Assembly: GCA_964019165.1 (NCBI GenBank)
Contig: OZ025267.1
Coordinates: 8,188,148 to 8,252,147, forward strand
Reading direction: 5' to 3'
Source: Mastigias papua
Taxonomy: Eukaryota > Cnidaria > Scyphozoa > Rhizostomeae > Mastigiidae
Length of the DNA: 64,000 nt
The notes beneath the pieces are model-generated. The model ran no database searches. It worked only from the letters and a program-made list of their open reading frames with translations, and was not told the DNA's origin. Position numbers and translations under genes: made by a program. Every line of letters begins with the position of its first letter. The first letter of the stretch is position 1. Below are positions 5,201 to 58,900 of the stretch, piece after piece.

Positions 5201-6318
5201 ATCAATGGTTCGCAAACTTTTCAAATTATGTTCCATGGCGTTCCCCTATAGAATATATTTTCGAATCATGGTTTCCCTGGAGGGATAAATTGATACTATG
5301 ATTAATATTCTTTCACGGAGAGCAAACATAAATGGAAATACAGGTTAATATAATAAGGAACAAGCGAAAGCAACCTGTCGAGGTTACCTGAAACCCTTTT
5401 CGGTCCACCTGGTACCTTCGCAGTCCCCTCGGGGACCGCGGACCCCAGTTTGGAAGCCACTGTCTTATACTTCTATGAGTTTCAGACGACAAAGTACATT
5501 CACTGAACTTGTTTCGGATTTTTTCCCACTATTGTATAGTTTTAAAGCTTGACAAGTTAATCACTTTACAATCTGTAGTTGTCTATTGCTGAGCACACAT
5601 TCTCCCATCGCAATGCATCTACAGTACATTTGATCGAATTTTTCCAGATGTTCTGCTTTGTAATAGTTATACTGTTCACATGATTTGAACTGTTTTATCT
5701 AGGATGTCTGTGTTTTGTGGAATAAATCGCTTCTACATTGACTCTTAAATCGTTTATTTATCTGCCATTTTATCGCAGCTTCAGCTTTGGGACACGGCAG
5801 GGCAAGAGAGGTTCAGACACAGTATGGTGCCTCATTATTATAGAAACATTGATGCTGCTGTGTTTGTGTTTGATGTAACTCGTCGAACTTCATTTGATAA
5901 CATTCCGAGGTGGATTGAAGAACTTCATGCGTTTAGCAGTAGGAGTAAAACCATCCCACAAATTATCATCGGCAACAAATGTGATCTGCATGCCGACAGG
6001 CAAGTCAGATCAAGTGAAATTAAGAACATTGCTAATCACTACGGACTGCCTTATTGGGAAACATCGGCTAAGAGTGATTTAGAGAAGGATACAGTCGAAG
6101 TTATCTTCAAAAGCATTGCTGAAAGCCTAAAGTTGAAGACCCCGTTAATGGGTTTTCCACCAGAGCATTCGACTAAAATTAATTTGCATGCCAAGGCAGG
6201 AATGACCATGGGTCAAAGTATTGCGGCATCGAGCAATTCGAATTCACAGAGTATGAGTGAAAGTGATCGTAGCCGGTATGGCAAAAGACCTATGAAGAAT
6301 CGTTGCTGTAGTACATAG
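2287..6318 (+). CDS. Rab33-like small GTPase (two coding exons)
   Basis: Coding exons are 2287-2502 and 5779-6318, joined in phase 0 through a GTATAG donor and a TATCGCAG acceptor, giving about 251 residues. All Ras-type motifs are present: P-loop GDMSVGKT (29-36), switch I threonine in TTIGVD, WDTAGQE (76-82), NKCD (138-141) and ETSAK (166-170). The C-terminus ends RCCST, with a cysteine pair suitable for geranylgeranylation. The GVDF.ER segment after switch I and the SMV..YYRN stretch resemble Rab33. In animals, Rab33 proteins act at the Golgi and on autophagosome formation through Atg16L; that role is inferred here. A likely acceptor just upstream (near 2268) suggests a 5' noncoding exon. 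AATAAA at about 6452 is a plausible polyadenylation signal. Another divergent Golgi Rab is possible but less likely. Confidence 0.87.
3366..3530 (-). mobile_element. LINE 3' tail fragment A (non-LTR retrotransposon ORF end)
   Basis: Read on the minus strand, this encodes the end of a reverse-transcriptase [12 protein letters not shown], then W-T-G, then [12 protein letters not shown], then a stop. The GRPR.TW..W and (A).DR..WR pattern is typical of the C-terminal tail of several LINE clades. After the stop comes a short (TGA)n run, a common LINE 3' tail. The copy is 5'-truncated and sits in the Rab33-like intron. Confidence 0.7.
3600..3793 (-). mobile_element. LINE 3' tail fragment B
   Basis: The minus-strand frame reads [12 protein letters not shown], then a DCI..DM motif, then [13 protein letters not shown], then [15 protein letters not shown]. 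The W.D(C)I..DM, RR.WRR and (A/C)DP.W pattern is the C-terminal end of a LINE ORF2. It is a different family from the neighbouring fragment, in the same orientation, and no upstream reverse-transcriptase domain remains. Confidence 0.65.
3800..5202. other. Rab33-like intron sequence, no further feature
   Basis: AT-rich intron. Short open frames here show no family motif and have no supported splice boundaries. Confidence 0.5.
5203..5462. mobile_element. hAT-type MITE in the Rab33-like intron
   Basis: The ends are imperfect inverted repeats. The left reads CAATGGTTCGCAAACT; the reverse complement of the right end reads CAGTGGCTTCCAAACT (12 of 16 match). This resembles the widespread hAT terminus CAGTGGTTCCCAAACT. 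The right subterminal part holds a GC-rich GGGGACCGCGGACC stretch. Flanking 8-mers match at only 5 of 8, so the insertion is old or the ends are slightly misplaced. A degraded relative of the right end lies at 28380-28453. Confidence 0.6.
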
Positions 6319-11650: not shown

Positions 11651-14600
11651 ATGGATTACAAATATCATTTCAAAGTGATTTTAGTTGGAAATGCCGGTGT
11701 TGGCAAAACTGCAATGGTTCGACGATTCACAAAGGGATTTTTCCCTTTCAAGGAGGCACCAACCATTGGAGTGGATATGAGTGTGAAGACGGTAGAAGTA
11801 GATGGAGAAAAAGTTAAGGTAAAAGTTACTTATTTTTCTGCTATCAATTCAGAGGATTACAACATCTTTGTGTTATTTAACTGAAAATGTTACGAGAATC
11901 ATTGCTGACATTTTACGTCTTTTAGTTTCACTGAAGTACCTTTCAAAGCTTTTTCTGTGGTACAACCTTCTTTATAGGGAACCTGGCTATGTAGAGAATT
12001 AGCGCTTGATGCTCCTTATTCTTGACCTCCTGTGACCACATCAAAGTAATAAAGATAGATCTTTACCTTTATCAACACATTTAGTGAAACACTTGCTACA
12101 TGGGATTACACCCAGTTCATGTGAATTTTGCCGCAACCTGCTTCCAAATTCTCGATTTTTGGTAATGATATTGATACTTGAAACTGTAAAGCTCCTTATG
12201 GTCTTTTCCTATAGTAGTTCAAGCTCCTTACAGTTTTTGGCTTTCTGCTTATTCGGCTGCTTTTGAAGGGGTATCTTATACGAGAAGCAAGCATGGCATA
12301 ACTTTAAAACAGTTGCTTTACATTATTCTACATAGGCACTTAAGAGCCTAGTATTATGGCTCTTACGTAATGTCATTCACGATAATTTTGGAAAAATACC
12401 CAAAACGCAAGATCGATGGGAGGGTTCATGACCCTATAAATAAATCCTACCTCGAATATATTCATACTTGGATTTGATTTGAAGGGCAAGCAAGGGAGTG
12501 ATCTCGATGCATTTTGTCACTTTCTGGCGCAATAATGGCTTAAAAAGCATAGAATCAGAGTAATTAAGAATCAAAAGGGGATTATTTAATTAAAGTTGGT
12601 CATCAAAACTAATACGAATTACCATTTTTCCTGATAAAATGTTTGAAGATTTATTGATGTTTAGATAGCATTAAGCTATGTTATATTTCCTTTAAGATGG
12701 CCTGCTAGTGCTTCCAAGGGAAGGCGACGCCCATTTTTAACAATAAAAGTATGGAACTGTAAGCAGTCCTTATTTTAAGCTCTGCCTAAAACTGGATCAT
12801 ACTGGTGCTGATGGAAAACTGCGCCTACTATTGTAGGTGTGCATAACTTTAATTCTTTAAGTCCAAGTCATTTTGAGATATTCAGTTCATTGAGACCCAG
12901 AAAACATTACTAAGTGACTTTGGGGCGTTAGAGATTAATTCGCACAAGGATACCGAATTAATAACAAATTTATCAATGGCGATATGTTTCTATATGGAGT
13001 GACGCAATGTTTTAAAACCACTGACAATCACGTTAATAGCTATATGCGTTAATTTATGCATGATATTACCAAGACATTGTATTGCTTCACCAAATACCTG
13101 TTATGGTCTTACACAATTTATTCGTATTACGTAATGGATGGGTCTTGCCGAACAACATGAACACTTTACTAATAAGGAAAACCTTTCTAGGGAGAGGAAT
13201 TTTATTCCTTATGGAATAGGGGCTGAAATTTTCTATGTCCTATAAGAAGCAGGTCGGCTCTAGTTTCTTTTCATTTACTATTCAAAGTTTTCCGTTTGTA
13301 GATTCATACTTCAAAGAAGTTTTATTGAGCCTCTGTATGGATATTCAATTAGTTAACTGTATTTCTATCACACAAGTTAAGTCCCTATACTCATGTAAGC
13401 AGTTCCAAGCTCTGAACTGTGGTGGGGGTTAAAGTTTAACCCTTCATCTGAGTATATGCTCTCTATTTCAGCTTACCCCATACATATGCAGTGTGAAAGG
13501 TGCTAAGTCATTCTTACTAATGGAAGTTATGACAGATTATGAAGTATTAGTTTGTCCATGAAAAATGCCATAGTTATTAGATATTTAACTCTTTGGATCA
13601 GTAATGAAATACAGCATAAATCCTGAATAGTCATAGGTGCCTAAAATGCTTTCGAAATATTTTGAACTTGTATAAACTTCCAGGAGAGCAGATTTTTCTT
13701 ACATCCTTGCCATAGTTATGTCTACAAGCCTGAAGCGAAAGAATACCCCCAACTCCTACATTTCCAAGTAATCTATTGCGATCCATCGCATTGAAGTCAA
13801 TGCTATCCAAACACATGAGTTTTACTGTGTTCAAGCTTCGTCAATAAACATGCTACCATTCCCACTTACATAGGTTGGTTGAGAATTAGCTCCAGGTCTA
13901 TTATCCCCTTGCTTTTTCGCCCATAATTGATTTCATGGGAAAATAAGATTTTAATGAGACCACTAATTCTCTTCTGACAACCCCATGAATGAGCATTCTC
14001 TTTGAGTGTTGCAAGTACTATCATTCTCATAATAAACGCCAAGGTCATCCATCAAGATGCTGTGCGACTTTCAGTTTAGGGTGGCCACATTCAATACGGG
14101 GATCAGCTGCTGACCTTCACTTGATTAACCTCTCACGTCTCTCAGTTAGCAGAATTGTATCTAGCATCTATTCCTCCCGGTAAACACCCAATCTTAATAA
14201 TGTTTTTGTTGATGCACGTTGTTTGACAGTTTAATATTCACATCGATGAATAATTACCAGTGCATATGTAGCATTAGCGTTTTCATTGCTCTTTCATTCT
14301 TAATTTTTCATCTTGTCATGTTGCTGGCTTTCCTTAATTCAATAGCTTTTAGAGTTAAAGCAGCTTCTCAACTATAGTTGAATGGGGCATTGTCGTTTGA
14401 GTCGTGTTGAGATCTTTTGAAACCAGTCCATCAATAGAAACTAATTCATTTATTGTGACCGAAAAACTGCTTTGCCGACTTTCTTGGGTTCTCTGTATCC
14501 TTCTTCTGATCAATTCTAGCTTTCAGATACTATTAAATGACGATTCCGTTAAAAGAAACAGTATTTATAGCAGGTAGTCTAAGTGAATGATAGTGTGCTA

Positions 14601-15751
14601 AACGCACATAAGAGAAAGTTGCATAGCGAAGTCCAACAGAAAAGCACTTCTCTATCCAAAATTTTGCCCGTGAGGTGTGCCCACCCAAAATGCTCGCCAA
14701 AATTAGTTGAATTGATAGCAGATTGTTCTTCCTTTCAATCCCACTGGCAGTAGCTCATAGCTGGATTGTCTCTTCCTTCTTCCCTCACCCTGGACTGATA
14801 TGAGTTGTGATATTTATCCACCATTCGATATTGCTAAGCAAATCCAGAGATAGCTCATCTATATTTGAAATTGTGCCAGGGAGAAGGGCAGATGATGAGA
14901 AAAGGTCGTTGGTAACTTGTTAAGTGTCTTAACTATTTTGGTGAGGAATGCAGTTGCTGCCATATTGTGACAGGTTGTTGACAAGCTCAGCTTGATTTAG
15001 GATTGTAGAACAAGAATGAAGAAAAAGAGAACAATTTCATTTGGAAGACTACTAGCACGAAAAATTCACGAATTCTCGACCAACGGGGTAGATATTGCAA
15101 AATAAGGTATATGTTGTGGCACTTACTGTATGTTGATGCTGGCATCGCGTAGTAACAGAGCTTCAATTATAACTGTCATGTTTATATACCTAACAGGTGT
15201 TTGTTTTTCCAATGCAGTTTAAAATTTGGGACAGCGCTGGCCAAGAGAGATTCAAATGTTTAACATCAAGTTATTTCCGAAACGCTGATGCTGCAATTCT
15301 AGTTTATAGTATCGACAGTGAAGAATCTTTTGACGGATTACATCGGTGGACACAAGAGCTTGACAAATGTGGCAAAGACAATCTCGTTAAAATAATTGTC
15401 GGGAATAAGTCGGACTTAGAGAACGATCGTGTCGTATCAACACAGAATGCTATTGCTTTTGCCATGGCTGACAATGCTACCGCAGCAATGGAATGCTCTG
15501 CGAAGGACAGTGACAACATAGAACTATTGTTTGAAGAACTGGCAAGAAAATTGATCAGTTTGATATCTGGTCACCTGACGAGCTATTTCGACGATGATAG
15601 CTGCGGCAACAAAAGCTATGATCCATGCAAAGGTAGACTTCTAAAGCCAGTTTGTGAAAATAACAATGGCACCCAAGTAAAGGAGTCGAAATTTTTCAAT
15701 TTCCTGGATATTTCATCGAACTGCTTTAGAAAAATATGTGGCATGTGCTAG
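11651..15751 (+). CDS. Rab30-like small GTPase (two coding exons)
   Basis: Exons 11651-11818 and 15218-15751 join in phase 0 (donor AAG/GTAAAAG, acceptor AATGCAG), giving about 233 residues. The start MDYKYHFKVILVGNAGVGKT closely matches the Rab30 pattern, where the P-loop GNAGVGKT (13-20) follows a short N-terminus. Other motifs: PTIGVD in switch I, IWDSAGQE (60-66), NKSD (119-122) and CSAK (149-152). Switch II has serine where nearly all Rabs have threonine (WDTAGQE). The C-terminus ends CGMC, a prenylatable tail. The segment before it is longer than in mammalian Rab30. Rab30 acts at the Golgi; the same role here is inference. It lies 5.3 kb downstream of the Rab33-like gene on the same strand, with its intron at the same position. 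Rab43 and Rab19 relatives are the main alternatives. Confidence 0.82.
11819..15217. other. Intron of the Rab30-like gene
   Basis: 3.4 kb of AT-rich sequence with no repeat or coding feature that I can support. Confidence 0.6.
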
Positions 15752-16059
15752 CAAAATGATAAAATTAGACTTGAGATATTGTCATAAAGAGCCAAATAGG
15801 TGTGTTTAACAAATGGAGTTCTTCAGTTTTATAGCTCAGGAAGCAAGGTGAAAATGTTATAGTCAATCAGCTTCTTTCTCCTAAGTTGTATGAACGCCAG
15901 CCAATCAGTGTGTAAAATGCGCTAAATCTTTCAGCATTGTTGACAATTGTGGCCAAAGGACCTCCAAGCTGTGGGAGACTCTAAATTGCTGGAAGTGAAG
16001 ACAAGCTTCTAGTGCTTCTCAAAGTAGAAATGTCATTCTACGTTTTGATCACAGGTGCA

Positions 16060-16272
16060 CACCATTAAGAAGCTCACAGAACATACATTTGACAGTCCTC
16101 CCTTATGCAAATCAAATCCAGGTCTATGCTAGATGGTGGCACAAGCAAATTCTCTACGATGAATGACATTCATCGTAGAGAATTTGCTTGTGCCACCATC
16201 TAGCATAGACCTGGATTTGATTTGCATAAGGGAGGACTGTCAAATGTATGTTCTGTGAGCTTCTTAATGGTG
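16060..16272. repeat. Perfect inverted repeat, 106-bp arms, 1-nt spacer
   Basis: The left arm (16060-16165) and right arm (16167-16272) are exact reverse complements over all 106 bases, separated by one A at 16166. Pairing stops abruptly at both outer ends. The arms have no open frame and no transposon-like termini that I recognise. It is either a very recent inverted duplication or a fold-back artefact of sequencing or assembly. Confidence 0.93.
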
Positions 16273-16559
16273 ACCAAAGTCTTCTACTAGTTTTCTGAGC
16301 AATTAATTAGCAGCCATAATTAGAGAAAGCAGTCTGATTCAACCAGCTTGATATAAAAAATCCTTAATTTAGGTAGAAAGTTTATGAACCTCACAATGCG
16401 TTCATTGAATACTCTCACAAGAATTACTCTTAAGTCTTATGCATTTCAGAAAGTAGCTCTATTTCTATTTATATTTCACAACAACAATAACTGCACCCAA
16501 CAACTTACCCGATGAACGAAATGCAGCCAACTAAACTCAGTGAATTCCTAATAGGCCAT

Positions 16560-17098
16560 TAGCGTATCATATCATACTATGCACCGTAACATATATCATA
16601 TGTCATATCATAGCCCAGACCTGGGCAATGCACGGCCCGCGGGTCACATACGGCCCATTGATTTACTCTGACTGGCCCGTGAAAGGCTGCATACAAAATA
16701 GATATATTTCGAAAATTCATGTTAAGCATTGACAAAAGCCACATCGCCTTTACTTTGAAGTTGCTTTTTACTCGCGTTCTTAAAAAGTGTAAATAATATT
16801 ATTTGGAAATGAATTCAGTCATTTTGACCTGGCCCTCCTCAGTATTTTTGCTTCTAATACCATATCATATTTTATCTTATCTTATCATATCATATCATAT
16901 CATATCATATCATATCATATCATATCATATTATATCATATCATAGCATATCATAGCATATCATATCATATCATATCATATCATATCATATCATATCATAT
17001 CATATCATATCATATCATATCATATCATATCATATATCATATCATATATCATATCATATCATATCATATCATATCATATCATATCATATCATATATCA
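16560..17098. repeat. (CATAT)n satellite interrupted by a unique insert
   Basis: Pentanucleotide CATAT units occur at 16560-16612 and, in a long array, at 16861-17098, with occasional CATAG and ATATC variants. The segment between them is not repetitive. Confidence 0.88.
16616..16855. mobile_element. Possible hAT-related element fragment inside the CATAT satellite
   Basis: The left edge reads CAGACCTGGGCAATGCACGG, followed by CGGCCC-type repeats (GGCCCGCGGG, ACGGCCC). This resembles hAT-derived repeats in many animals. No matching inverted right end is visible, so the right boundary is set only by the return of CATAT units. Confidence 0.35.
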
Positions 17099-20000
17099 TC
17101 TAATATTTTACGAAATATTTGGTGCTATATTGTGTAACTTTAAGTATTTGTACATGTACAGTTGATAGTTCAACGTTTCGATAATGATATTTCATAAAAA
17201 TCGTAGATTCGAGTTGCATCTGTTTTGTAGATAACATATATAGTTTACAAAAAATTCGCTTTTAGAAACAAATGTTTAGCTGTTTGGAATATTTGTGTTG
17301 TTTTGTGAATAGGAAAATTGATGACAGCATAGTGTTCTTTATGCTTGTGTAAGAAGGATAATACAAAGAACTATGGATGAAAATGTGAATGATTATTTTT
17401 ATCTTTAAAAACGTAACTTTGGGGTGATTCCTCTCTAGAACATTCTTCGCATCTCCATCATTTCATCTATAGTAACTTAAGAAAAAAATGAAACTGGAAA
17501 CCTTATTTGTGATGGTGTTTGCTGACTCTAGTTCTTCGTGGCGTAACTGTGTCACCCTATTACTTTCTTAGCTCCTGGAGACTGTGATCAGAGCTCGAAA
17601 CTTGGGAAGCAATGAACAGGTGGCTTTCAAAAAAACTACCTTAACGTAACAAGATAACAGCGAAAGACTGTTAGGGCTTAAATGCTAATATCAAAGGCAT
17701 CGTAAAGAACAGTTATCTCTTGTGCTTCCTGCCAGCAATTTCAATATACTGGGATGGGGAACACTGCTTCCACCTTTATTAGTGCGATGAGCAGACCTTG
17801 ACATGAGATCGAAATTATAAACAGTTTCCACATAACATCAAAACATGAACCTAAGGAAGGATCCGAGGCAGAAGATAGACATTCCAGAAGAGTTCATGAT
17901 CTAGTTGTGTAATTTTGACGAATAATTCAATAACACAATAAACGAAATCAATCTCAACACAAGGTGTAAAAAATGATACACAGTAACGTAAGTCAGGTTT
18001 CAATGTAAAATGCACAATAAATCAACGACCATAACTCATTTTCCAAACGTATTTTATAACATCTACACAGCTACGTGTCTTACAATTTGTCGTCTATATA
18101 ACAGCTAAGTTGATATTATGCACAGATGTGAACAAGGAACCACCCATATAAAAAAGGTGACACAGAAATTATGGGGCTCATCTTGAGTCATCTTGGGATA
18201 TCATTAATTTTTGGGGACTGAAAAGTCTTGTATTATATATTAACATTTTATTCGATTAACTTCAAGGTACATCTTGTATATCTGTGCCAGTCAGTCTGTC
18301 TCATAAGTCCCCAATACTTCTACAGCACATTACTGTTAAACAGTTTTACTGAATAATGGGTGCCAGAAAGAGAACAGATGCACAACCAAGTGCAGTATGT
18401 TTGGACAAGTACTTTGAAACAATAAATTACTTATTCTGCTAGATTAAAAATGAGGATGAACCAGCACATGTTTATGGTGGAACAACTAGCATAATCACAG
18501 GCAAAAGGCAAAGTGTAAGTGGCAAAGCGACCATCTCCTATGCAGAAATAACATTCTTCCATAAGTGAGTCAAATGTTTTACTTGGAGGAGTCACATTGT
18601 TCATTGTGAGAGACTTCATTTAAGAAAGATCGATGCTACAAGATTGTAGTGAAATTTTGATGGAAATTGTCGAGAAAATGCCAAAAATAGTGCAGGTATC
18701 ATCAGGTGTGTAACAGATTGCACTAATCTTTCTTCTGCATAAAGGACAATAAAATGGCTCCATTACTATTTACAAAAGCAATCTAAAAGTAACTTTGCTA
18801 ACAAAAAGTCAAACACTAAGTGAAAATGAAAACACAATATGTACTGATATTTCACAGCAGCAACACATTTGACCAGCGATCCTAAACTCAGCCCCATAAT
18901 AAGACTGTCTCATACCACTAGAACACAATGTATGTCACCAGTGTTAAACAAACTATGGCACAATTCATGCTTTAAAACACCAGGGGCAAGGCAGTGAGAC
19001 AGACCTCTCTTACTCTTTCAACTATCATGTAAAACATGAAGGAGGTGATGGTAAGAACCTTCATGTAATCAGCAAGAAATGAGTTTCCAAACAGTGTCTC
19101 AATTAACACACATACTTGTTTCTGATTATTGTTATAGATAGAAGTAGAAAATGAAGCAGACTTGTAACACAAGCATGTTTGAAAGACAACTTTTAACTTT
19201 GACTTTACAGTGAGTTGAAATGGCTTCATATCAAATGAAGCCGAGTTGCTTGCTCTTCAGAAAGTCAGGAGCTTCACACCTTGCCCCTGTCAGTTGGTGC
19301 TTCTATCCCACAATCTACAGAAATACTATTCAATTTATGTTGCTGGTCTGAAGAATAAAAACAACTTCAAATACCTACTACTTAACTATGCAGCACATCC
19401 TCATCTTTCCAAACTGTTTAAACACACATTTTCAGAGAGTTGTTCAAATAAGCGAAAAATTGGGATAACAAAGAATGTGTTTTTCTCTATAAATGCGACT
19501 AGTTGTACAGAGGGAAACTATGGCACCAAGCATTCTCATCAGTTGCATTATTGATAGTTGTAAGGAAATCATTTGTAATATACTTAGTCACATGGAAAAG
19601 TGTGAAAAACTAATGGTTTACATTTTGTCTGATCCAAAGTTCTGTCGAACCCTAATGTATTCACATGCTAAATTACCAAGAACAGAAAACTGTTTACATA
19701 AATGAGGTTTAAACAAGTGAGGTTTCGATATAAACAAGGGTGCACTGTACTGCCAACATGCTATAATTTCTCATCTAATCTGGTCATGATATGTACTGGA
19801 GTACTATGTGGCAAGATTGAGGAATCATGGTACAATGTGATGAAGTTAATAACAAAAATGCCTACAAACAAATGATGTGATATTCAATTCATTTTGATTT
19901 GCCTTTTCTCCTAGTGAAGGAAACTGTAATCCTAGGTGAGAAAAGCTGACAGGAAAATTAAAATCTCAAACCAGTCCATTCATTAGCATTGCATTGTTAA

Positions 20001-20297: not shown

Positions 20298-22443
<2,146 letters not shown>

Positions 22444-23200: not shown

Positions 23201-55941
<32,741 letters not shown>

Positions 55942-58900
55942 TTGATGTCGAAATACAGAAGTCTTTGCCTCAGATACTTGCATTTTTCATCATTGAAGCC
56001 CCACTTTGACTTCAAAACTCAAGGATGGTTTCGAATTTCTCTGATTAACTTTGCTCTCTGATGAGAAGATGCCCGTTATGCTGCTTGTTGACCGATTTTT
56101 CAGTTGTGTCATCTGTGTTGGGATTAGATTGTCTGTATCTTGTCGTGTTATGTAGATTCTATATAAGCCAGTGTTCCCATACAAATTATGTTCCACGACA
56201 GTCTCCTGCAGTATTCTTTCTCGACTCATGATCTTCCTAGAGAAATACATAGATGATATGATTAGAATAATTTCAAAGACAACGAACATTAACAATGATA
56301 CAAGTCAGGGATCCACTAGGCTATACCCTTAATATTTTACTCAAAAACCATGACCCACATTGAAATTGATAGATTTTAGTTATATATTGAAACGTCATTA
56401 ATACTCACCAATTTTGCCCGAAAAATAAGGCTACAGCCTTGGTATTTTACCCAAAAATAACCAAACTTGAACTTCATTCAGTTTGACTACAGTTTGAAAA
56501 GTGATGAAACTGAGCAAATGTTGGCCAAACGTAAGGCTATAGCTTTGGTATCTTAACCACTAATGACCAAAACTGAAATTCACTCATTTCGAATACAGGT
56601 CGAAAAGTGATAGAAATGAGTCAATTTTGGCCAAACAGCAAGGCTATAACCTTGATATTTTACCCAAGAATGGTAGAAATTTAAATTCATTCATTTTTAT
56701 TCCTGATCGACAAGTGATAACAATGAGCCAATTGTGACCAAAAAGTAAGATTATAGCCTTGGTATTTTACCCAAAACTGGCCATAATAGAAATTGATTGA
56801 TTTCGATTACAGATTGAAAAGTGATGAAAATGAGCCAATTTTGGTCAAAGAATAAGGCTATAGCCTTGATACTTTGCCCATAAATGACCAAAATGGAAAA
56901 TGATTGATTTTGATTACAGATTGAAAAGTGATGAAAATGAGCTAATTGCGACCAAATAGTAAGGCTATAGCCTTGGCATTTTACCCAAAACTGGCCATAA
57001 GTGAAATTCATTTATTTTGATTGCTGACTAAAGTGTTGAAAATTAGCCAATTTGTGACCAAAAGGTAAGGCTATAGCCTTGTTATTTTACCCAAAATTGA
57101 CCATAATTGAAGTTCATTCATTTTGATTGCAGATTGAACAGTGATGAAACTGAGCCAGTTTTGGTCAAAAAGTAAGTCCATAGCCTTGGCATTTTAAGCA
57201 ACACCGGCCAAACTTGAAATTCATTCATTTTCATTGTAGATTGAACAAAGACGAACATGAGCCAGGTTTGGCCAAAAGGTAAGGCTATAGCCTTCGTATT
57301 TTGCTGGAAAATGAGAAAAAATTGAAATTGATTGATTTTGATTGCAGATTGAATAGTGATGAAAATGAGCCAAATGTGGCCAAAAAGCAAGGCTATAGCC
57401 TTGGTATTTTACCTAAAAATGACCAGCATCGAAATTTATTCATTTTAAATGCAGATCAGACAGCTATGAAACTGAAGCAATTTTGATCAAGAAGTAAAGC
57501 AATTAACTTGGCATTTTACCCAAAAATGACCAACATTGAAATTCATTCATAACGCTGGCAAACTGAGAGGTCGCGAAAATGAGCCAATTTTGGCCAAAAG
57601 GTAAGGCTATAGCCTTGGTATTTTGCCGAAAAATGGCCGAAAAATGACCGAAATTGAAATTCATTGATTTTGATATGAGATTGAAAAGTGATGAAAATGA
57701 GCCAATTTTGGCCAAAAGGTAAGGCTATAGCCTTGGTATTTTGCCGGAAAATGGCCGAAAAATGACCGAAATTGAAATTCATTGATTTTGATATGAGATT
57801 GAAAAGTGATGAAAATGAGCCAATTTTGGCCAAAAGGTAAGGCTATAGCCTTGGTATTTTGCCGAAAAATGGCCGAAAAATGACCGAAATTGAAATTCAT
57901 TGATTTTGATATGAGATTGAAAAGTGATGAAAATGAGCCAATTTTGGCCAAAAGGTAAGGCTATAGCCTTGGTATTTTGCCGAAAAATGGCCGAAAAATG
58001 ACCGAAATTGAAATTCATTGATTTTGATATGAGATTGAAAAGTGATGAAAATGAGCCAATTTTGGCCAAAAGGTAAGGCTATAGCCTTGGTATTTTGCCG
58101 GAAAATGGCCGAGAAATGACCGAAATTGAAATTCATTGATTGTGATATGAGATTGAAAAGTGATGAAAATGAGCCAACTTTGACCAAGAGGTAAGATTAT
58201 AGCCTTGGTTTTTTACCCAATATTGGACAAATTGAAATTCATTGAGTTTAAATAAAGGTCGAAAAATGATGAATATGAGGCAACTTTGACCAAGAGGTAA
58301 GATTATAGCCTTGGTTTTTTACCCAATATTGGACAAATTGAAATTCATTGAGTTTAAATAAAGGTCGAAAAATGATGAATATGAGGCAACTTTGACCAAG
58401 AGGTAAGATTATAGCCTTGGTTTTTTACCCAATATTGGACAAATTGAAATTCATTAATTTTGTGATTTATTTTTATGCATACCTTGAGAGCCATTAGAGT
58501 TTTCAGTTTCCTTATAGATAGTCGAGCGACACCCATATAAGCAAAACAACAGAATGCAGTCATATAACGGGGTACGGCCGTGTTGACATAAATTTGGCCG
58601 TTTGCTGCAAAGAAAGGTCTTGTAACCTCCTTTCAGGGGAACATGAGAGGGAGAAAATCGAACAGGTGGTAGACGGTAGCAAAAACTACACCAGATTTAG
58701 TGCTATTTTTCATACTGAACAGTTCATAGTGCTACATAACACGGGGAAACATTACCATAACATTAAAACAGCAAGAAAGGGAATATCAAGCAGATTTATA
58801 AAGACTCTTCACTCCAAGGCGATTCTTCGCATTTGTTTTTGCTAAGGTGTAAACAGGCTGAATCTCGTTTTACTTTCAGTTTAGAATTCCCTGATACATT

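What the first reader, a model, noticed from the sequence alone, without database searches (positions are those of the whole stretch)
16060..16272. Perfect 213-bp palindrome with a single-base spacer
Two 106-bp arms are exactly complementary with one base between them, and pairing ends sharply. Near-spacerless palindromes this long are unstable in cells and in cloning, so an intact perfect one is either very new, maintained by some process, or an assembly fold-back. If transcribed, it would make a 106-bp double-stranded RNA hairpin that could feed an siRNA pathway. It lies about 300 bp past the Rab30-like stop codon, so it could be in that gene's 3' UTR.
Basis: partly seen in the sequence, partly recalled or inferred. 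Interest (0 to 1): 0.75.

Follow-up and report, generated by a model that had tools for sequence, protein, structure and literature searches.

The report
Young near-spacerless 213-bp DNA palindrome
A stretch of 106 DNA letters in an animal-like genome is followed almost immediately by its exact mirror copy, most likely the fresh scar of a copying slip during DNA replication rather than a gene or a mobile element; it is rare but of a known kind.

Summary
Window 16060-16272 is a perfect inverted repeat: 106-nt arms, one A between them, pairing stopping at both ends. It is far beyond chance; in 234 kb of this genome no other complex perfect inverted repeat with spacer up to 10 had arms over 12 nt. 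The one answered whole-genome search (346.8 Mb) found the arm only as these two copies. There is no target-site duplication and the flanks do not mirror each other. This argues against a MITE and a simple assembly fold-back. Best explanation: a recent local inverted duplication, a 107-nt templated insertion by replication template switch or fold-back, a size within the published range (median 12, maximum 128 nt in great apes; PMC7954356, passages). Zero mismatches bound arm divergence at 2.8% if the arms evolve independently. The siRNA idea has no positive support: the 3' UTR end cannot be placed and no second genomic match offers a target. Real, probably, but of modest interest.

The parts
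16060..16165 (+). left arm, 106 nt
   Evidence: exact reverse complement of 16167-16272; with the right arm, the only match in the assembly at E 0.001
16166..16166 (.). single-base spacer (A)
16167..16272 (-). right arm, reverse complement of the left arm
16040..16059 (.). left flank; no target-site duplication with the right flank
16273..16292 (.). right flank; its first two bases (AC) agree with the spacer and the next base, and the two arms share their last two bases (TG), so the junction can slide by 2 nt on either side if the ancestor carried the left arm only
11651..11827 (+). stretch matching the N-terminal 59 residues of a Rab30-like relative, first coding exon of the Rab30-like gene (exon ends not determined)
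   Evidence: tblastn with P0010, 88% identity
15212..15751 (+). last coding exon of the Rab30-like gene with stop codon (5' end of the exon approximate)
   Evidence: Ras family PF00071 E 1.1e-34; Rab-30 chain 2ew1_A is the second-best solved structure; tblastn

Best explanation
A recent local inverted duplication. A polymerase copying one 106-nt segment downstream of the Rab30-like gene switched strand (or the nascent strand folded back), copied the segment backwards, then returned to the original template, leaving an inserted 107-nt reverse-complement copy beside its source. Shown: exact arms, near-zero spacer, single genomic locus in the one search answered, no target-site duplication, flanks that do not mirror. 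Inferred: the switch-and-return event, which arm is original, and youth. Once made, the DNA could form a cruciform and any transcript a 106-bp hairpin, but nothing here shows a function.
For: Arm found at one locus only in 346.8 Mb. No target-site duplication, tested at 1-12 nt. Flanks do not mirror each other. If the ancestor carried the left arm only, the insertion junction has 2+2 nt of sliding identity (TG and AC), as microhomology-aided switching would give; weak support. Template-switch events of this size are documented: great-ape gold-standard set, median 12, maximum 128 nt (PMC7954356, passages), and such switches can create perfect stems in one step (PMC8794818, passages). Arms identical at 106 of 106 columns: pairwise divergence under 2.8% at 95%.
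Against: No relative's or second haplotype's DNA was available, so the state with a single arm has not been seen. 107 nt is near the top of the published short-range distribution, and in PMC8794818 the largest pattern, up to 59 bp, failed the authors' quality control. The microhomology is short and two ancestral states were examined (2+2 and 2+1). A DNA strand cannot fold back with a 1-nt loop (recalled; PMC7999016 gives four to six unpaired central bases), so the switch must have been between strands or through a somewhat larger loop.
Confidence: 0.6

Rival explanations
1. Assembly or library artefact: a fold-back or duplex-read error that survived into the consensus.
For: Near-spacerless palindromes are hard to replicate and sequence (recalled); no reads were available here. 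Letter-perfect arms are what a copying artefact would give.
Against: A fold-back would go on mirroring the flank; here the flanks are unlike. No N in the window; long pure repeats are carried intact, such as (TA) over 201 bp, which suggests long accurate reads (inference). The nearby Rab proteins sit on a 1.0-Mb contig record.
Confidence: 0.17
2. A palindromic transposable element (MITE or foldback) of which this is a lone young copy.
For: Size is in the MITE range (recalled); other inverted-repeat sequences exist in this genome, for example the decayed hairpin at 36179-36575 with a related fragment at 41352-41473 and long-armed ones in sampled stretches L012 and L018.
Against: Arm has no other match in the assembly at E 0.001 (a search that skips very common words and scores only the best candidates). 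No target-site duplication at 1-12 nt; TTAA lies 5 nt inside both ends, so a TTAA target would need five chance-matching outer bases (sequence). Low alignment scores of the arm with five sampled inverted repeats (13-21) and with the 36-kb hairpin (17 and 18).
Confidence: 0.1
3. An old palindrome kept perfect by arm-to-arm gene conversion or hairpin-templated correction.
For: Template switching may help to maintain stems, though the authors call that role less clear (PMC8794818, passages).
Against: No sign of a wider imperfect palindrome around it; the next-best complex hairpin of the window is decayed to 72%, so maintenance is not general here.
Confidence: 0.08
4. A functional hairpin-RNA locus making siRNAs, in the 3' UTR of the Rab30-like gene or as its own transcript.
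For: An RNA of 16040-16292 folds at -202.7 kcal/mol, z -30.7, as any perfect hairpin must. It lies 308 bp past a stop codon. Rfam mir-2831 matches at E 2.2e-09, though below its gathering score.
Against: No second genomic match for a target at E 0.001 or better; no canonical polyadenylation signal from 15700 to 17300; 6 of 6 Rfam microRNA matches are below gathering score.
Confidence: 0.05

Closest known systems
Short-range template-switch mutations in great apes (PMC7954356, passages read)
   Same: An inserted reverse-complement copy beside its source, giving a perfect inverted repeat in one event; 107 nt lies within the reported maximum of 128.
   Different: The ancestral sequence is unknown here; far longer than the median of 12.
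Template-switch origin of RNA hairpins and microRNA loci (PMC8794818, passages read)
   Same: New perfect stems made in a single event.
   Different: Patterns there were up to 59 bp, the largest failing quality control; no transcript is known here.
Human palindromic AT-rich repeats, PATRR (PMC7999016, passages read)
   Same: Palindromes of a few hundred bp carried in an animal chromosome; PATRR17 is about 200 bp.
   Different: PATRRs are over 90% AT and near-perfect; these arms are 41.5% GC and perfect.
Coding palindromes of Nematomorpha mitochondria (PMC6649704, abstract read)
   Same: Perfect inverted repeats of up to 284 bp.
   Different: Those are many, mitochondrial and inside genes; this is one nuclear locus (on a 23-Mb contig), with stops in all six frames.
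MITE or foldback elements
   Same: Full-length inverted repeats of this size (recalled).
   Different: Single locus, no target-site duplication.
Drosophila hairpin-RNA loci (PMC10317233, PMC10292708; search listings with the start of the abstract only)
   Same: Long hairpin arms at one locus.
   Different: Those repress genes of similar sequence (recalled); none is found for this arm at E 0.001.

Membership tests
Template-switch (local inverted duplication) event | adjacent exact reverse-complement copy | tested here: met
Template-switch (local inverted duplication) event | copied segment is local, not from elsewhere | tested here: met
   only the two arms at E 0.001 in the one genome searched; very common words are skipped
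Template-switch (local inverted duplication) event | size in the documented range | tested here: met
   107 nt against maximum 128 (PMC7954356); above the 59 of PMC8794818
Template-switch (local inverted duplication) event | ancestor or relative with one arm | not testable with these tools
   states that G000 has no relatives held; no eukaryote nucleotide collection was available
MITE / cut-and-paste transposon | target-site duplication | tested here: not met
   lengths 1-12 (only a 1-nt agreement, A)
MITE / cut-and-paste transposon | several copies in the genome | tested here: not met
   caveat: very common words are skipped and only the best candidates are scored
MITE / cut-and-paste transposon | terminal inverted repeats | tested here: met
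   trivially true of a palindrome
Hairpin-RNA siRNA locus | sequence-matched target elsewhere | tested here: not met
   at E 0.001; the looser search to E 10 did not complete
Hairpin-RNA siRNA locus | transcript and 21-23-nt small RNAs | not testable with these tools
   no RNA data
microRNA precursor (Rfam) | score above a family's gathering score | tested here: not met
   6 matches with E up to 1, 0 of 6 at gathering; best 50.9 bits (E 2.2e-09) against a cut-off of 90

The most novel reading that the evidence does not exclude
A newborn hairpin gene caught in the act: one template switch has put a perfect 106-bp double-stranded RNA hairpin into the 3' UTR of a Rab gene, so that the transcript is now diced or edited and the gene's dosage is altered in carriers.
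Probability: 0.05. Interest if true: 0.55.

Novelty: new member of a known kind. Interest (0 to 1): 0.3.

Why it matters
If real and polymorphic, it is a datable natural example of how long palindromes are born in an animal-like genome, before instability or mutation erases them. It would let mutation, cruciform breakage and new-hairpin birth be measured at one unique locus. It does not point to a new kind of system.

Tried and rejected
Wider imperfect palindrome around the perfect one: rejected. Target-site duplication at 1-12 nt: none beyond a single shared A. Similarity of the arm to the 36-kb decayed hairpin and to five inverted repeats in sampled stretches: low scores only (no shuffle control was run for these). 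Coding content: all six frames across the 213 nt contain stops. Exact 29-nt arm pattern in genome contigs and viral contigs: 0 matches each; plasmids, distant mode: none. These collections hold prokaryotes, viruses and plasmids, so the absence says little. Organism naming through Rab homologues: not resolved; the closest hits carry no organism names. Rfam: one tRNA in the window at gathering score, nothing at the palindrome at gathering score. Paper search on foldback, palindrome, long reads and assembly artefact: one paper, on tumour breakage cycles, seen as listing only; paper searches on MITE palindromes and on template switching with microRNA genes gave nothing that I used.

Full report
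The observation. Bases 16060-16272 form a perfect inverted repeat with 106-nt arms and one A between them. The arms are ordinary sequence, 41.5% GC against 39.1% and 30.8% in the 1-kb flanks. Outside the repeat, left flank and reverse-complemented right flank show no similarity beyond shuffles at 60, 150 and 400 nt, so pairing ends sharply. Under base composition the expected number of such repeats in the window is about 10^-53; 60 fifth-order Markov simulations gave longest complex arms of 9-14 nt. The filters matter: low-complexity arms, such as the 201-bp (TA) run at 21041-21241, also make long palindromes and were set aside.

The setting. The window is C1:8188148-8252147 of an unnamed assembly of 346,844,687 bases in 172 contigs; C1 has 23,086,502 bases. 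GC is 35.5% in the window and 33-41% in the sampled stretches. The palindrome lies 308 bp past the stop codon of a Rab30-like gene whose coding stretches match at 11651-11827 and 15212-15751 on the + strand. A second Rab-family gene lies upstream (matches at 2296-2505 and 5776-6309, open frame to 6318).

How unusual it is here. I fetched 17 stretches of 10 kb from contigs C1, C3, C4 and C5 (of 20 asked). In these plus the window, 234 kb with 780 N, there were two complex perfect inverted repeats with arms of 12 nt or more and spacer up to 10: this one and one of 12 nt in L006 (arms with low 4-mer variety or under 20% GC were dropped, and their number was not kept). A gapped scan for hairpins spanning up to 400 nt found longer imperfect ones: L012 (106 columns, 95%, 104 nt between arms), L018 (100 columns, 94%, 107 nt between), L016, L006, L011, L019, a satellite in L004, and the decayed hairpin of the window at 36179-36575 (185 columns, 72%). 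So inverted-repeat sequences are present in the genome, but in this sample none other is both spacerless and perfect. The sample is under 0.1% of the assembly, so the genome-wide number is not known.

What it is. In the one whole-genome search that was answered, the arm matches at one place only, as these two copies. That search skips very common words and scores only the best candidates, one in this case. There is no target-site duplication at 1-12 nt beyond a single shared A. Both results go against a MITE. A simple assembly fold-back would continue to mirror its flank, which this does not. The anatomy is that of an inserted 107-nt reverse-complement copy next to its source. If the ancestor carried the left arm, the junction slides by TG on one side and AC on the other (2+2 nt); if the right arm, 2+1. 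I take this as weak support for microhomology-aided switching, because both ancestral states were tried. Published short-range template switches in great apes (gold-standard set) have a median copied length of 12 and a maximum of 128 nt (PMC7954356, passages), and the process can make perfect stems in one step (PMC8794818, passages). I therefore favour a recent local inverted duplication by template switching or fold-back synthesis, at 0.6.

Age. No mismatch in 106 columns bounds pairwise divergence at 2.8% with 95% confidence if the arms evolve independently; arm-to-arm conversion would void this bound. The longest perfect inverted repeat reported for the human genome has 140-bp arms, under limits of arm 10 or more and spacer up to 8 (PMC13155455, passages), so 106-bp arms are rare but not without precedent in an animal. 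Human palindromes of 200 bp and more are known as near-perfect AT-rich repeats (PMC7999016, passages).

Function. As RNA, 16040-16292 folds at -202.7 kcal/mol, which any perfect hairpin would. There is no AATAAA or ATTAAA from 15700 to 17300; variant hexamers lie before (15758, 15783) and after (16352, 17193) the palindrome, so the end of the Rab30-like transcript cannot be placed. Six Rfam microRNA matches (five families) are listed, the best (mir-2831) at E 2.2e-09, but all six are below their gathering scores; I read them as hairpin shape. No second genomic match offers a target at E 0.001. The siRNA idea remains open and unsupported.

Limits. No reads, no RNA, no second haplotype and no relative's DNA could be examined. 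The genome search was answered once; the looser search for diverged copies did not complete. The artefact reading keeps 0.17 for that reason.

Noticed in passing
window 36179-36575: Decayed hairpin of 397 bp (arms 72% alike over 185 columns); a related fragment lies at 41352-41473, so it looks like a repeat family with fold-back structure.
   Followed up: partly
   Followed up: partly
window 56318-58462: Satellite-like tandem array (units of about 106-118 bp) with repeated copies of the 14-bp palindrome AAGGCTATAGCCTT.
   Followed up: no
window 16615-16690: GC-rich stretch with GGCCCG motifs shortly before ATATC repeats; it resembles termini of non-autonomous hAT-like elements as I recall them, not tested.
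   Followed up: no
L004 (C1:1000001-1010000): Satellite array with inverted-repeat structure across much of the 10 kb, several copies 214 bp apart.
   Followed up: no
window 21041-21241: Pure (TA) run of 201 bp without interruption, itself a perfect palindrome; perhaps a sign of accurate long reads.
   Followed up: no
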